Assembly (NCBI GenBank): GCA_016839425.1
Contig: JAEOUI010000192.1
Coordinates: forward strand, 1-16,587
DNA length: 16,587 bases
DNA from: Promethearchaeota archaeon
GTDB lineage: Archaea > Asgardarchaeota > Lokiarchaeia > Sigynarchaeales > SOKP01
Reading direction: 5' to 3'
The notes beneath the pieces were generated by a model. The model did no database searches. It was given only the letters and a program-made list of their open reading frames with translations, and had not been told where the DNA came from. The position numbers and the translations under genes were made by a program. This document shows positions 4,001 through 11,292 of the stretch, piece after piece. Position 1 is the first letter of the stretch. Every line of letters begins with the position of its first letter.

Positions 4001-4753
4001 ATGAAGTTCAATAATAGTCATGATGATCAATATGGAAACGATTTTCAGCAAAAATCGAAATATAAGAGAGGAAAATTACCACATCATTATTTAGATTGGA
4101 TTAATAGGCCAAAACAATATAAGATCTATGAAAATGCTCTATTTCGCGTTGAACTTCCAAAACTAGAGTTTCCTTCTAATGTCAATTTTTGGAAAACGAT
4201 TTTAAATCGTCATTCTACTAGATCGTACTCTAAAACACCTCTGAATCTTAAAGAACTTGGTTTACTGCTATTTGGAATGTGCGGTTTGACTAGAATTCAT
4301 CCAGAGTTTGCCTTTCGAACCACGCCTTCTGCAGGAGGGCTTTATCCCATTGAAGTATATCCAATTATAAATAATGTAGAGAACCTAAAACCGGGCGTTT
4401 ATCATTACGACATAAAGGAACACGCTCTTGAATGCATACAAGAGGGAGATTTCAGAGTAGAAACCTGCAACGCGTGTCTTGGCCAAAAATTGGTTAAGGA
4501 TTCAGCCGTAAACTTTATCTGGACGGTAATAATAGATAGATCACGGTGGAAATACCTTCAACGCTGTTATCGATATATCTATCTTGACTGCGGACACATC
4601 GCACAAAACTTTTATCTCGTTGCTGAAGCGTTAAATCTGGGTTCCTGCACTATTGGTGCGTTATATGATGACGAAGTGAACGATATTTTAGGTATCGACG
4701 GTGTTTACGAGACGGTTATTTATATTGGAGTTGTAGGAAAAATGAAATCTTGA
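4001..4753 (+). CDS. SagB/ThcOx-type FMN nitroreductase
   Basis: The 250-residue protein carries the SagB-type nitroreductase signature: an FMN-phosphate-binding arginine region RHSTRSYS (70-77), the hallmark PSAGGLYPIEVY (109-120), and a C-terminal segment (about 205-248) with QNFYLVAEALNLGS and a closing IGVVGK. Relatives oxidise thiazoline/oxazoline rings in RiPP biosynthesis, but many archaeal members stand alone with unknown substrates. No YcaO, E1-like or precursor-peptide gene is visible, so an azole-forming role cannot be assigned. About 60 residues of basic, poorly structured sequence precede the core. The ATG at 4001 is the first in frame. Family confidence is high; substrate is unknown. 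Confidence 0.85.
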   Translation: MKFNNSHDDQYGNDFQQKSKYKRGKLPHHYLDWINRPKQYKIYENALFRVELPKLEFPSNVNFWKTILNRHSTRSYSKTPLNLKELGLLLFGMCGLTRIHPEFAFRTTPSAGGLYPIEVYPIINNVENLKPGVYHYDIKEHALECIQEGDFRVETCNACLGQKLVKDSAVNFIWTVIIDRSRWKYLQRCYRYIYLDCGHIAQNFYLVAEALNLGSCTIGALYDDEVNDILGIDGVYETVIYIGVVGKMKS

Positions 4754-4767: not shown

Positions 4768-4805
4768 GACTTATGATAAATTTCATCCTATCATATCTTA
4801 TATAT

Positions 4806-4877
4806 CAAGGTAGCAAAAAAGGGAGTAAACAACTAGTTTAAAATGATTGAATCACCATAGGTGAATATACTGCCTTG
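4806..4877 (+). ncRNA. Structured RNA element, copy 1 (unrecognised class)
   Basis: The sequence folds by eye into a three-way junction. The outer stem P1 pairs CAAGGTAG (4806-4813) with CTGCCTTG (4870-4877), 8 bp with one G-U. P2 pairs TAAAC with GTTTA (4826-4840). P3 pairs TCACC with GGTGA around an ATA loop (4852-4864). The linkers are CAAAAAAGGGAG, AAATGATTGAA and ATATA. A T-rich flank (4881-4899) follows. The second copy at 4951-5028 has the same order of stems and linkers of similar length, with paired changes in P1, P2 and P3. This supports a conserved RNA rather than chance. It does not match any riboswitch, tRNA or C/D or H/ACA guide pattern that I know. Transcription is inferred. 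Confidence 0.55.
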
Positions 4878-4917
4878 AATTTTAATTTCATTTTAATAAT
4901 AGTCCTCACAGTAAAAA

Positions 4918-4925
4918 CTTAAAAA
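4918..4925 (+). promoter_or_regulatory. Promoter-like A/T box before structured element 2
   Basis: CTTAAAAA is centred about 29 bases before the first paired base of element 2 at 4951. Transcription from it would begin almost exactly at the element's 5' end, as expected for an independent small RNA or for a leader of the downstream operon. Confidence 0.3.
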
Positions 4926-4950
4926 CAAAGAAATACCACTAATATCAATA

Positions 4951-5028
4951 CCAAGGTGGCAAAATAACGAGTGAAATCTCATTTATTTCACGGTGAATGG
5001 AAGAACCTAAGGTTCTAATACCACCTGG
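4951..5028 (+). ncRNA. Structured RNA element, copy 2 (unrecognised class)
   Basis: The outer stem P1 pairs CC plus AGGTGG (4951-4952 and 4954-4959, with a bulged A at 4953) with CCACCTGG (5021-5028). P2 pairs GTGAAAT with ATTTCAC (4971-4991, 7 bp). P3 pairs AGAACC with GGTTCT around TAA (5002-5016, 6 bp). The linkers CAAAATAACGA, GGTGAATGGA and AATA parallel those of copy 1; shared positions include GCAAAA after P1, GAGT at the start of P2 and TGAnTGnA before P3. The T-rich flank TTTTATTTTAATAA (5029-5042) resembles the one after copy 1. The element ends 35 bases before the first ATG of the Spo11-like operon, so it may be its leader or a separate small RNA. Confidence 0.6.
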
Positions 5029-5063
5029 TTTTATTTTAATAAACAATCATATGAAATAACCAA

Positions 5064-5723
5064 ATGGATCTTTCAATTGATATCGATTTAAATCCAGATC
5101 TAAAAGAAATTTTAAATAATATTGGAGAATCGGATAATGTTACCGAGAACTTAACAGTTATCTTGAAAGAGTTCATATTTATTAAATTAGAAAAAATAAA
5201 CAAAATAATATTAGAAATTCAAGAAGAAAATCTGCGATCAGCAAATATATCAAAAGAGTTGATGGATCTTTCTAATTATCCAAACGAAAAACTCCTTTTG
5301 ATACAAGAGAAACTCTTAAAAACATTAGAAAAGCTGAAAAAGTTCGAAAAACAGGAATTGACTGAGGAAGATTATTTAGAAATCATCGAAAACTTTGAAA
5401 ATGAGAGCGAAGCAGATGATATCGATTTATTCGACATTCATAACGAGGATAAAGCTCAACAATATAAAGATATGAAAAAATTAGAGAGCAAGTCAATCCA
5501 AATATATAATAGAAAAAAAATAGCTGAATTAACAACAAATAGGATCTTAGAAGCGTTGAACTCAAGCGAACTATTAAACATGAAAGATCTAATTTTTAAA
5601 TTGAAGATTCGCGATATGCTAGATGCTCGTTTCATTCAAGTTAAATTAAAAGAACTTGAACGAAAAGGTTTGGTAGAATCTAAAATCAAGATGGGAAAGA
5701 AATATTGGAGAAAAACAAAATGA
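5064..5723 (+). CDS. Coiled-coil protein with C-terminal winged-helix domain
   Basis: The 219-residue, strongly charged protein opens with an acidic segment (MDLSIDIDLNPD) and continues in long Leu/Ile/Lys/Glu helices (about 30-115) typical of a coiled coil. A very acidic linker follows (about 116-150, with FENESEADDIDLFDIHNED). The C-terminus from about 150 has the helix-helix-helix-wing order of a winged-helix domain, ending in the basic wing GLVESKIKMGKKYWRKTK. It is the first gene of a tight three-gene operon, overlapping the next by four bases (ATGA), and lies just downstream of the tandem structured elements. The architecture suggests a DNA-binding scaffold partner for the Spo11-like protein. 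I do not recognise a named family. Confidence 0.8.
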   Translation: MDLSIDIDLNPDLKEILNNIGESDNVTENLTVILKEFIFIKLEKINKIILEIQEENLRSANISKELMDLSNYPNEKLLLIQEKLLKTLEKLKKFEKQELTEEDYLEIIENFENESEADDIDLFDIHNEDKAQQYKDMKKLESKSIQIYNRKKIAELTTNRILEALNSSELLNMKDLIFKLKIRDMLDARFIQVKLKELERKGLVESKIKMGKKYWRKTK

Positions 5724-6142
5724 AACTGGATGTATTCTTATTGGATTGTTTAAAACACCTAGGATTTGGCACTTATCTTGAAGAGGATTTGCTAAATGTG
5801 TTAATCGAAGTTTTAAAAAATAGAATCTCAAATTTAAAAATACTAGAATTAAAGAATAAAAATCAAAACAAAAAAGAAGATATATCACCTAAAATTAAAA
5901 CGACTCAAGAATTATTCAAAAACACAATTCAAAAAAAAAAAGAATTTAAGGAGTTTAGAGACAAAAAAAAGCGTTATATTGAACAATCAAACAACTTAGC
6001 AAAAATTGTTTTTTTTGGATTAAAAATACCTGAGAAGGAGATTCAAGAAAAATTAATAGATATCTCTAATTCAAGTTTAGCTAACTATAAATATAACACT
6101 TACAACGCATTTCGAGAAAAATTAAAAGAGAAGATGAAATAA
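5720..6142 (+). CDS. Small basic helical protein, middle gene of the Spo11-like operon
   Basis: The protein has 140 residues from the ATG at 5720, whose ATGA overlaps the stop of the preceding gene. An in-frame ATG at 5705 would add five residues, but the four-base overlap is the more typical coupling. The N-terminal 35 residues (MKLDVFLLDCLKHLGFGTY) look like a compact helical domain. The rest is rich in Lys, Asn and Glu, with a basic helix (KKKEFKEFRDKKKRYIEQ) likely to form a coiled coil or bind nucleic acid. The next gene starts 17 bases downstream. No family is recognised. Its position suggests an accessory subunit of the Spo11-like protein. Confidence 0.75.
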   Translation: MKLDVFLLDCLKHLGFGTYLEEDLLNVLIEVLKNRISNLKILELKNKNQNKKEDISPKIKTTQELFKNTIQKKKEFKEFRDKKKRYIEQSNNLAKIVFFGLKIPEKEIQEKLIDISNSSLANYKYNTYNAFREKLKEKMK

Positions 6143-6159
6143 ACAAATATATCAAAATT

Positions 6160-7413
6160 ATGAAGAATAACAAGGATGATAAAGGTTATTTCTGCAATAA
6201 ATGCTCCAGAATGCATTATACGGGAAAGATATTTGAGGAACACGCGGAATACGCTAGAGCATCTGAGGAGCTCAATGATCAAAGGAATATATTACATAAA
6301 GCATACCCCCTCGTTTCTGAAGAGGTTCAAGTTCCACAAAACGCGCTAATTTTTAGAGATTTTGACCGATTATCTCTTCTTGATAAGATAAACGATCTCA
6401 TTAGGATTGTATACAATCAAATCTCGAATGGAAAGATTCCAAAACTCGAAATTCCATTGAGAAGAAGAGAAAATATCGTATATAACGAACAGGGAAATTT
6501 ATTTTTAGGAACTAAAACTCGTACGATTGAATTTGGAGACAAGTATTCAGAACTGGTTAAATTAACACGAATAGCTGTATTTGTAAAAGAGCTTCTTGAA
6601 ACAGACATTTACGCTACTAAAAGGGAGATGTTTTATAATGATGTCCCACTATTTAAGAATCAAAGATACAGCGATAGAATAATCGAAGACCTCGCTGTTA
6701 AATTAGGTACATTTCGAGATAACTTACATGTCGTTGCCTCTCCAAAAGGCTCTTGCATTGGACGTTTAAAATTGAAAGATCAGAATGATATTATTGATCT
6801 CGAAAAACTTGGAACTGGAGGTTGGACCATACCTACTTTTCTTAAAAATATCGAAATCTTAGAATCTGACGCAAATTTCGTCTTAGTTCTTGAAAAGGAT
6901 GCCGCCATGTTGCGTCTTTCCGAAGCTAAATTTTATCACAAAATACCTTGTATCTTGCTAACATCTCAAGGATTTCCGAACTATTCTGCAAGATTATTTT
7001 TAAAAAAGATTACTAACGAATTGAAAATCCCCGTCTTTGGACTTGCAGACGCAGATCCGCATGGATTATCAATTTTAATGGCATATACATATGGTACCAT
7101 CCAATCTGCTCACGAAACTTCTCGACTTGCGACAAATAATTTTTATTGGCTCGGAGTAACATCATCGGACATAGAAGACTACGACATTCCCGAACGTAAC
7201 CGGATTAAGATGACAAAAGCAGAGATGAGAAAAGTTCAAGAGATGCTTGACGATGAGTTCCTTAAGAAACACCCAAAATTAAAGGGAGAATTGAAACACA
7301 TGCAGACTTTCGGTCAAAAAACGGAGATTCAATCCTTTACATTACGAGGATTTCAATTTTTTATGGATTACATTACTTCGAAAATAGATACAGGAGAATT
7401 AATAAAATTTTGA
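6160..7413 (+). CDS. Topoisomerase VI subunit A / Spo11-like DNA-cleaving protein
   Basis: The 417-residue protein has the full Top6A/Spo11 layout. A 5Y-CAP winged-helix domain includes REMFYNDVPLFKNQ, in which Tyr159 aligns with the catalytic tyrosine that forms the 5'-phosphotyrosine link. The Toprim domain has its acidic residues at Glu245 (LVLEKDAA) and Asp297/Asp299 (LADADPHG). The conserved WLGVTSSDI follows. The RExFY and DADPHG forms look more like eukaryotic Spo11 than the TDGDP-type Top6A I recall from euryarchaea. An extra N-terminus of about 75 residues carries C12-x2-C15-x3-H19-x8-H28, a possible zinc finger. No Top6B ATPase is adjacent; two helical proteins precede it instead. 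It could be the cell's only Top6A with Top6B elsewhere, or a specialised paralogue that makes double-strand breaks. Confidence 0.9.
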   Translation: MKNNKDDKGYFCNKCSRMHYTGKIFEEHAEYARASEELNDQRNILHKAYPLVSEEVQVPQNALIFRDFDRLSLLDKINDLIRIVYNQISNGKIPKLEIPLRRRENIVYNEQGNLFLGTKTRTIEFGDKYSELVKLTRIAVFVKELLETDIYATKREMFYNDVPLFKNQRYSDRIIEDLAVKLGTFRDNLHVVASPKGSCIGRLKLKDQNDIIDLEKLGTGGWTIPTFLKNIEILESDANFVLVLEKDAAMLRLSEAKFYHKIPCILLTSQGFPNYSARLFLKKITNELKIPVFGLADADPHGLSILMAYTYGTIQSAHETSRLATNNFYWLGVTSSDIEDYDIPERNRIKMTKAEMRKVQEMLDDEFLKKHPKLKGELKHMQTFGQKTEIQSFTLRGFQFFMDYITSKIDTGELIKF

Positions 7414-10688: not shown

Positions 10689-10730
10689 TAAAAATATATT
10701 TAGAGCTAAAAATATATTTAGAGCTAAAAA
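10689..10730. repeat. 18-bp direct repeat, 2.3 copies
   Basis: The unit TAAAAATATATTTAGAGC occurs twice head to tail (10689-10706 and 10707-10724) and is followed by a third partial TAAAAA. It lies midway between the divergent promoters. It may be simple slippage expansion or a tandem binding site. Confidence 0.6.
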
Positions 10731-10794: not shown

Positions 10795-10986
10795 ATGGTC
10801 ATAGATCTTAATATATATCCAAAAGTACAAAAAAGTCAACAAGCGAAAGAAATAAATTTAGACGATCTTCCGCAATGCTACTCAAACTACGACAAAACCC
10901 ATACAAGCTGTCGTCAATGTATTTTTCAAGAGAAATGCTTAATGCTAGCTCATCCAAGAGATCCTGAATGGTGCAACCCTTTATAA
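10795..10986 (+). CDS. Small Cys-rich protein, copy A
   Basis: The 63-residue protein has a polar N-terminus and a Cys-rich C-terminal half with Cys at 28, 39, 42, 48 and 60, that is C-x10-C-x2-C-x5-C-x11-C, ending in PEWCNPL. The pattern could bind zinc or an iron-sulfur cluster. The next small gene has exactly the same spacing and a matching P-x-W-C ending, so they are tandem paralogues. It is divergent from the RHH-comDE operon and lies upstream of the PLP enzyme, which suggests a link to sulfur metabolism or its regulation. No named family is recognised. Confidence 0.7.
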   Translation: MVIDLNIYPKVQKSQQAKEINLDDLPQCYSNYDKTHTSCRQCIFQEKCLMLAHPRDPEWCNPL

Positions 10987-11118: not shown

Positions 11119-11292
11119 GTGACGAAAATCGATAATATAGACAATATAAAATCAGGACAAGAAACAAGAAAAAACAACTATCCATCTTGTTTTGGTAATT
11201 ATTGCCCGAATCACGAGGCCTGCTCTGATTGTACCTATAAAAAGGAATGCAAAGAAATAAAAAATCCTAAGGAGCCAGGATGGTGCCAATAA
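11119..11292 (+). CDS. Small Cys-rich protein, copy B
   Basis: A 57-residue frame starts at GTG 11119 (MTKIDNIDN) and has Cys at 24, 35, 38, 44 and 56 in the same C-x10-C-x2-C-x5-C-x11-C spacing as copy A, plus an extra Cys29. It ends EPGWCQ. The preserved cysteine spacing and P-x-W-C end, with little other identity, argue that this is a real gene although it is short. No ATG is available nearby, so the GTG start is provisional and no clear ribosome binding site is seen. The PLP-enzyme gene follows 45 bases later, with its own TATA-like box. Confidence 0.65.
   Translation: MTKIDNIDNIKSGQETRKNNYPSCFGNYCPNHEACSDCTYKKECKEIKNPKEPGWCQ

What the first reader, a model, noticed from the sequence alone, without database searches (positions are those of the whole stretch)
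4806..5028. Two tandem copies of an unrecognised three-way-junction RNA-like element
Both copies share an outer stem, two hairpins in the same order and linkers of nearly equal length. Stem bases differ between copies while pairing is kept: P1 T-G becomes T-A and A-T becomes G-C, and P2 and P3 differ wholly in sequence. Conserved unpaired bases (GCAAAA after P1, TGAnTGnA before P3) suggest a binding or tertiary role. Each copy has a promoter-like box upstream and a T-rich 3' flank. This is what a pair of small RNAs or tandem aptamers would look like.
Basis: seen in the sequence. Interest (0 to 1): 0.85.

Follow-up and report, generated by a model that had tools for sequence, protein, structure and literature searches.

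The report
Paired three-stem RNA elements, Asgard archaeon
Two side-by-side copies of a short folded element, kept in shape although their letters have changed, sit between two genes of an uncultured Asgard archaeon; they look like real structured RNAs of an undescribed kind, but what they do is not known.

Summary
Two elements (4805-4878 and 4950-5029, + strand) in the 310-nt gap between a SagB-like gene and a winged-helix/Spo11-like operon share an outer stem, two hairpins in the same order and similar linkers. The 16 pairs compared are kept in both copies, four through changes on both sides. A model built from copy 2 alone finds copy 1 at 44.4 bits with structure and 11.9 bits without. The flanks are no more alike than shuffles. 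No Rfam family reaches its cut-off. No convincing homologue was found in 80 Spo11-like loci or 227 Asgard genomes; those genome searches scored few candidates each, and the window's close relatives are not held. With two copies, family-level covariation cannot be tested. In this contig 7 of 9 examined genes have an all-A/T 7-mer at -30 from the start codon. The winged-helix gene has one right after copy 2, which weakens a 5'UTR-aptamer reading. Best reading: paralogous structured RNAs, more likely stand-alone than leader aptamers; function is inferred. Transcription is unproven, and promoters of the copies themselves were not supported.

The parts
4805..4878 (+). Copy 1 of the element: P1 4805-4813/4870-4878, P2 4826-4830/4836-4840, P3 4852-4856/4860-4864
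   Evidence: Minimum-energy fold of the copy alone gives these stems, z -3.25, 0 of 200 shuffles as low; found by a model built from copy 2 alone at 44.4 bits
4950..5029 (+). Copy 2 of the element: P1 4950-4959/5021-5029 with a bulged A, P2 4971-4977/4985-4991, P3 5002-5007/5011-5016
   Evidence: Fold z -2.81, 1 of 200 shuffles as low; the 16 aligned pairs are kept against copy 1, 4 with both sides changed. P2 competes with another hairpin in its own fold
4814..4825 (+). Copy 1 linker P1-P2; conserved CAAAA...GAG, counterpart in copy 2 at 4960-4971 (its last G opens P2 there)
   Evidence: Alignment of the two copies
4841..4851 (+). Copy 1 linker P2-P3 with TGATTGAA; counterpart in copy 2 (TGAATGGA) within 4992-5001
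   Evidence: Alignment of the two copies
5029..5042 (+). TTTTATTTTAATAA: A/T box 22-35 nt before the ATG of the winged-helix gene; possibly its promoter, and at the same time a T-rich 3' flank of copy 2
   Evidence: 7 of 9 examined genes of the window have an all-A/T 7-mer starting at -30; by the 6-gene matrix 74 of 1000 shuffles score as well here; inference
4001..4753 (+). Upstream gene: SagB-like nitroreductase-fold dehydrogenase
   Evidence: PF00881; TIGR03605 157.4 bits, cut-off 78.4
5064..5723 (+). Downstream gene: 219 aa; its C-terminal part (called winged-helix-like here from its look, no family matched) matches the C-terminus of a Lokiarchaeal Topo VI B-like protein
   Evidence: 56% identity over 82 aligned positions to L001:2874-5951; that protein carries PF09239; no Pfam match of its own
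5720..6142 (+). 140 aa gene of unknown family in the same apparent operon
   Evidence: No Pfam match, no NCBIfam match
6160..7413 (+). Spo11 / topoisomerase VI subunit A-like gene
   Evidence: PF21180, PF04406, PF20768; relatives named Promethearchaeota among its matches

Best explanation
The two elements are paralogous copies of one structured RNA of an undescribed family, read from the + strand, each about 75-80 nt long. An outer stem closes a junction from which two hairpins project, and two conserved linkers, one of them A-rich, form the likely contact surface. Shown here: the shared fold, compensatory changes, and that similarity is confined to the element. Inferred: that the copies are made as short stand-alone RNAs, or cut out of a transcript reading through from the SagB-like gene, and act by binding a protein or another RNA through the conserved linkers. 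The downstream winged-helix/Spo11-like operon probably has its own leaderless promoter between copy 2 and its first ATG, so the elements are more likely not part of that mRNA.
For: Structure adds 32.5 bits to the detection of copy 1 by a model of copy 2 (44.4 bits; 11.9 bits without structure). The 16 compared pairs are kept, 4 with double changes plus one U-G/U-A change. Alignment 0 of 2000 shuffles and consensus fold 0 of 1000. Flanks not similar beyond chance, as expected if the folded element alone is under constraint. One U-G pair in P1 of copy 1 is a pair on the + strand and an A-C mismatch on the - strand; consensus fold -12.25 on + against -9.85 on -. No coding signature: stops in the three + frames and mismatches without a consistent codon-position bias. 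An all-A/T 7-mer starts at -30 in 7 of 9 examined genes and at -29 in 7 of 9, the winged-helix gene among them. [quoted passage not shown]
Against: Only two copies, in one contig; no convincing homologue in 80 loci or 227 Asgard genomes. The - strand of each copy also folds well (z -2.78 and -3.98), so orientation rests mainly on one wobble pair. The whole gap folded as one transcript is not unusually stable (z -0.74) and its minimum-energy fold loses P1 of copy 2, though the centroid keeps it. A promoter matrix from 6 window genes gives no support for a start site at either copy (282 of 1000 shuffles do as well for both) and only modest support for the winged-helix gene's own box (74 of 1000). 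tRNA flanks from three Lokiarchaeal genomes showed no single clear box position to compare with. No transcript evidence.
Confidence: 0.45

Rival explanations
1. Tandem cis-regulatory aptamers (riboswitch-like or protein-sensing) in the 5' leader of the winged-helix/140 aa/Spo11-like operon: each copy binds a ligand or the operon's own protein, and the T-rich stretch after each copy ends transcription when the outer stem is closed.
For: Copy 2 ends 34 nt before the start codon. [quoted passage not shown] PMC2864571, passages seen). T-rich stretch after each outer stem. The promoter matrix supports the winged-helix gene's own box only modestly (74 of 1000 shuffles).
Against: An A/T box at the position typical of this contig's genes lies between copy 2 and the start codon, which would put the mRNA start at or near the ATG, after both copies. 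No terminator-like site by consensus scan (bacterial-type rule, of limited value for archaea). No Rfam riboswitch at cut-off. No similar element in 80 loci around Spo11-like genes.
Confidence: 0.28
2. A DNA-level element: a tandem palindromic site (operator for a regulator, ssDNA structure used by a DNA-handling protein, or remnants of a small mobile element) that also folds as RNA.
For: Both strands fold. A topoisomerase-like gene lies in the downstream operon, and STAXI elements, repeated structured motifs near topoisomerase and other DNA-handling genes, were discussed as possible ssDNA structures (PMC2864571 section 26, read; the authors thought RNA more likely). Copy 2 abuts the probable promoter of the winged-helix gene.
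Against: The change T-G to T-A in P1 makes sense as RNA, less so as a DNA palindrome. The conserved parts include unpaired linkers, not only the arms. No direct duplications were seen at the edges by reading; no phage match and one 38-bp plasmid match, E 0.02.
Confidence: 0.15
3. A diverged member of the AdoCbl-II cobalamin riboswitch family.
For: Copy 2 is the best Rfam match of the gap: 21 bits, E 0.023 when 401 nt are searched.
Against: E 0.95 over the whole window and far below the gathering score of 36.5; copy 1 is not listed; the alignment marks non-standard pairs and some conserved letters of the model, such as the third G of GGGAA after the outer stem, are not kept. None of the families matched by neighbouring genes is a cobalamin gene, though some neighbours match no family.
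Confidence: 0.03
4. Chance: two unrelated A/T-rich palindromes that happen to align.
For: Only two sequences; 34 of 500 shuffles of the 3' letters reach the pair counts.
Against: Alignment 0 of 2000, consensus fold 0 of 1000; half-against-half alignment of the gap 0 of 1000; E 2.7e-8 for copy 1 with a model of copy 2.
Confidence: 0.04

Closest known systems
STAXI motif (Weinberg et al. 2010, PMC2864571, section 26 read)
   Same: A structured element repeated in tandem near genes for DNA-handling proteins, topoisomerases among them; the paper leaves open RNA or ssDNA and leans to RNA.
   Different: STAXI is mainly a pseudoknot, usually three copies, often with UUCG tetraloops; here a three-way junction, two copies, P3 closed by ATA/TAA triloops and no TTCG in either copy.
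Tandem regulatory RNA candidates such as glnA and pan (PMC2864571, passages seen)
   Same: Structured units in a row upstream of genes.
   Different: No Rfam match; a probable promoter lies between the elements and the gene. Their conserved letters were not compared one by one.
AdoCbl-II riboswitch (RF01689)
   Same: Outer GGTGG/CCACC stem and an A-rich stretch after it in copy 2.
   Different: 21 bits against a gathering score of 36.5; copy 1 not matched.
Pyrococcus abyssi intergenic and 5'UTR-derived ncRNAs (PMC3124441, abstract and section 14)
   Same: Short archaeal intergenic structured RNAs, some promoter-associated or cut from leaders.
   Different: No sequence comparison with them was made beyond Rfam; the paper reports Northern blot and RACE evidence, there is none here.

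Membership tests
Any Rfam 15 family | Match at or above the family's gathering score | tested here: not met
   0 matches in 16,587 bases against 4227 families
AdoCbl-II riboswitch (RF01689) | Score at or above 36.5 bits with the conserved core | tested here: not met
   21 bits, copy 2 only, with non-standard pairs
STAXI motif | Pseudoknot repeated two to three times, UUCG tetraloops frequent | tested here: not met
   Three-way junction without TTCG in either copy; definition from PMC2864571 section 26. Pseudoknots were not computed, and whether a STAXI model is in the Rfam copy was not checked.
STAXI motif | Tandem, near DNA-manipulating genes incl. topoisomerases | tested here: met
   Two copies, the second 1.1 kb before a Spo11/Topo VI A-like gene. 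A likeness of setting only.
Riboswitch (tandem aptamers) | Lies in the 5' leader of the regulated mRNA | tested here: inconclusive
   Probable promoter box of the downstream gene lies after copy 2 (modest support); no start site data
Riboswitch (tandem aptamers) | Binds a metabolite or ion | not testable with these tools
   Needs in-line probing or a similar assay
Stand-alone small RNA | Own promoter | tested here: inconclusive
   All-A/T 7-mers at -29/-28 of copy 1 and -31 of copy 2 from the outer stem, besides others further upstream; a 6-gene matrix gives no support: 282 of 1000 shuffles score as well for both
Stand-alone small RNA | Discrete transcript | not testable with these tools
   No transcript data held
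Structured RNA family by comparative criterion | Covariation over several homologues | tested here: inconclusive
   4 of 16 pairs with double changes between two copies; no further homologues
tRNA | Detected by ARAGORN or the Rfam tRNA model | tested here: not met
   0 genes; 0 Rfam matches

The most novel reading that the evidence does not exclude
A new RNA class of Asgard archaea: tandem three-way-junction RNAs that sense a ligand or a DNA-handling protein and control a Spo11/topoisomerase VI A-like operon that has lost its neighbouring Topo VI B gene.
Probability: 0.15. Interest if true: 0.75.

Novelty: new member of a known kind. Interest (0 to 1): 0.45.

Why it matters
Three searches of the held open-licence library, Asgard archaea with riboswitch (7 papers), Lokiarchaeota with small RNA and transcriptome (6 papers) and Asgard with noncoding RNA and Rfam (2 papers), listed no paper that by its title and abstract start describes an element like this one; RNA topics listed there include SECIS elements, 5S rRNA expansions, group I introns and IS200/IS605 omega RNAs. 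I saw the listings only. Two diverged copies that keep the same fold are a good entry point for finding a family once close relatives of this contig can be searched, and their place in front of a Spo11-like operon would make regulation of such genes in Asgard archaea testable. By itself it is one more orphan structured RNA candidate.

Tried and rejected
Homologue searches that led nowhere. R1 on 80 Spo11-like loci (the best 80 of 239 confirmed stretches): best other match 21.0 bits, E 0.74. R1 on 28 genomes reached through loci: 2 of 28 with E <= 1. R1 on 227 Asgard genomes: 2 of 227 with E <= 0.1, at most 19 candidates scored per genome in the rows shown. R1 on two batches of 40 of those genomes, up to 112 candidates each: 4 of 40 and 2 of 40 with E <= 0.5, about what chance gives. 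I looked at the alignments of these nine distinct places (L081-L084, L116-L120). The best, L083 at 29.1 bits, lies inside an open frame of 239 aa. L118 overlaps the end of a 224 aa frame and does not fold that way; L120 does not fold that way. The other six were judged from the alignment alone. R2 on 48 sources (the window and 47 of the 80 loci): best other match 18.4 bits, E 0.97. R2 on 227 genomes: 0 of 227 at E <= 0.01; the tool warns that an empty answer without a positive control shows nothing, and the window's own genome is not held.

Pattern AGGTNGCAAAAN{3,12}GAGTNAA in 227 genomes: 11 of 227 with a match, none folding as the element by its minimum-energy fold; R1 on these 11 and on 8 viral-contig matches: 0 matches. 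Spo11 alignment in viral contigs: 52 stretches matched a pattern, none a relative. Phages: no match; plasmids: one 38-bp match, E 0.02.

Considered and rejected: coding remnant (stops in the three + frames, no consistent codon-position bias); tRNA; AdoCbl-II; bacterial-type promoter sites (3 found, 2.8 expected). A motif search over 301 upstream regions from the 80 loci found no positioned A/T box (gene starts there were crude longest-frame guesses). A tRNA-flank control used 27 of the 30 fetched loci (three dropped, next to another tRNA or near a contig end) and was inconclusive.

Selections to know. One search used 9 of the 15 gene starts printed; the six dropped lie inside apparent operons or have uncertain starts (one coordinate printed there, 2391, is not a start codon). 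One search trained its matrix on 6 of those 9 genes, leaving out the winged-helix gene as a test and two others (orf200, orf394) that I judged by eye not to show the box, so it is small and biased. The structure given to R2 was drawn with both copies in view.

Full report
WHERE IT IS. The window is a 16,587-base contig, by its proteins from an uncultured Asgard archaeon. The Spo11/topoisomerase VI A-like protein at 6160-7413 has its best relative at 53% identity (P0005, unnamed source); named relatives in the list are Promethearchaeota and other Asgard archaea. Its best match in the scanned genome collections is 44-45%. No whole genome is held for the window. The elements lie in the 310-nt gap between a SagB-like dehydrogenase gene (4001-4753) and a 219 aa gene (5064-5723) that starts an apparent operon with a 140 aa gene and the Spo11-like gene.

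WHAT IS THERE. Copy 1 folds on its own into the three stems described, z -3.25, 0 of 200 shuffles as low; copy 2 gives z -2.81, 1 of 200. In copy 2 the outer stem and P3 appear in both the minimum-energy and centroid folds, while P2 competes with another hairpin. Aligned, the 16 compared pairs are standard in both copies. Four have changed on both sides (one in P1, one in P2, two in P3) and one is U-G in copy 1 and U-A in copy 2. Sliding the partner by 1 to 3 columns leaves 28-52% of cells paired. In the same of 500 letter shuffles reached the observed counts, so pair counts from two rows are weak by themselves.

IS IT MORE THAN CHANCE. The copies align at score 125 against 62.8 +/- 11.0 (0 of 2000 shuffles), and the consensus fold is -12.25 kcal/mol against -1.35 +/- 1.49 (0 of 1000 column shuffles). 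The strongest test builds a covariance model from copy 2 alone and asks whether it finds copy 1: 44.4 bits, E 2.7e-8 over the window. Without structure the same letters give 11.9 bits, E 0.004. The structure given to the model was drawn with both copies in view, a mild circularity; copy 1's own fold gives the same stems independently. Similarity ends at the element: 547 of 2000 shuffles of the upstream flanks and 321 of 2000 of the downstream flanks do as well. This is what constraint on the folded element predicts, and it argues against a recent duplication of the whole stretch.

STRAND. The U-G pair favours the + strand, as does the consensus energy (-12.25 against -9.85). Against this, the - strand of each copy also folds well (z -2.78 and -3.98).

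WHOLE GAP. Folded as one 311-nt transcript, the gap is not unusually stable (z -0.74, 22 of 100 shuffles as low), and the minimum-energy fold loses P1 of copy 2, though the centroid keeps it.

CODING. The three + frames are interrupted and mismatches show no consistent codon-position bias.

KNOWN FAMILIES. Rfam gives 0 matches at gathering score. The nearest in the gap is AdoCbl-II at 21 bits, copy 2 only, E 0.95 over the window, with a gathering score of 36.5.

HOMOLOGUES. None convincing in 80 Spo11-like loci, in 227 Asgard genomes with two models, in deeper searches of 28, 40 and 40 genomes, or by sequence pattern. These negatives are limited: few candidates were scored per genome, and genomes close to the window are absent.

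PROMOTERS. Of 9 examined genes in the window, 7 have an all-A/T 7-mer starting at -30 and 7 at -29 from the start codon, against 0-3 of 9 at positions outside -36 to -24. This looks like leaderless archaeal promoters; [quoted passage not shown] The winged-helix gene has such a box (5029-5042) directly after copy 2, so its mRNA probably starts after both elements; a matrix trained on 6 other genes supports this only modestly (74 of 1000 shuffles score as well). The same A/T test finds 7-mers at -29/-28 of copy 1 and -31 of copy 2 counted from the outer stem, besides longer runs further upstream, which would suit independent RNA genes. But the matrix does not support start sites there: 282 of 1000 shuffles score as well for both. 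It prefers starts at 4790 and 4923, which would give 5' extensions of 15 and 27 nt. I treat the promoters of the copies as undecided.

WHAT IT MOST LIKELY IS. A pair of paralogous structured RNAs of an undescribed family. I put 0.45 on stand-alone or processed RNAs and 0.28 on leader aptamers, together 0.73 for a selected RNA of a new family; 0.15 on a DNA-level element; 0.03 on a diverged AdoCbl-II; 0.04 on chance. The conserved linkers are the natural candidates for contacts; this is inference.

COMPARISON. The setting, a tandem structured element near a topoisomerase-like gene, resembles STAXI (PMC2864571, section 26), but the fold does not and I do not file it there. Archaeal intergenic RNAs that are promoter-associated or cut from leaders have been described in Pyrococcus abyssi (PMC3124441, abstract and section 14).

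VERDICT. It stays an orphan until relatives or transcripts are seen.

Noticed in passing
window 5064-7413: In the two Lokiarchaeal loci tested, the frame before the Spo11-like gene is 1026 or 1131 aa with a Topo VI B transducer domain, and its C-terminus matches the C-terminal part of the window's 219 aa protein (for L001). That part matches in 66 of the 96 loci then held (twelve of the 96 are second fetches of places already held), and 27 loci listed before script 34 stopped have frames of 987-1210 aa there. In the window that place holds only a 219 aa and a 140 aa protein: a Spo11-like gene without an adjacent Topo VI B, keeping only the tail domain.
   Followed up: partly
P0002, P0003: The same C-terminal segment occurs near the N-terminus of two 256 aa proteins that carry PF04326: a segment shared between different architectures.
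   Followed up: no
window 10795-10986 and 11119-11292: Two adjacent small Cys-rich proteins (63 and 57 aa) look like paralogues: 28% identity over 46 aa, E 2e-12 for the single comparison, with several cysteines and a P..P.WC end kept.
   Followed up: partly
window 10689-10724: Exact 18-bp tandem repeat TAAAAATATATTTAGAGC x2 in the gap between a 200 aa gene on the - strand and the Cys-rich gene; GTTCAC half sites lie nearby, possibly operators.
   Followed up: no
window, upstream of start codons: 7 of 9 examined genes have an all-A/T 7-mer starting at -30 from the start codon: this organism may use mostly leaderless mRNAs.
   Followed up: partly
window 4001-4753: SagB-family dehydrogenase gene (157.4 bits, cut-off 78.4) with no recognised peptide-modification partner among the window genes scanned.
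   Followed up: no
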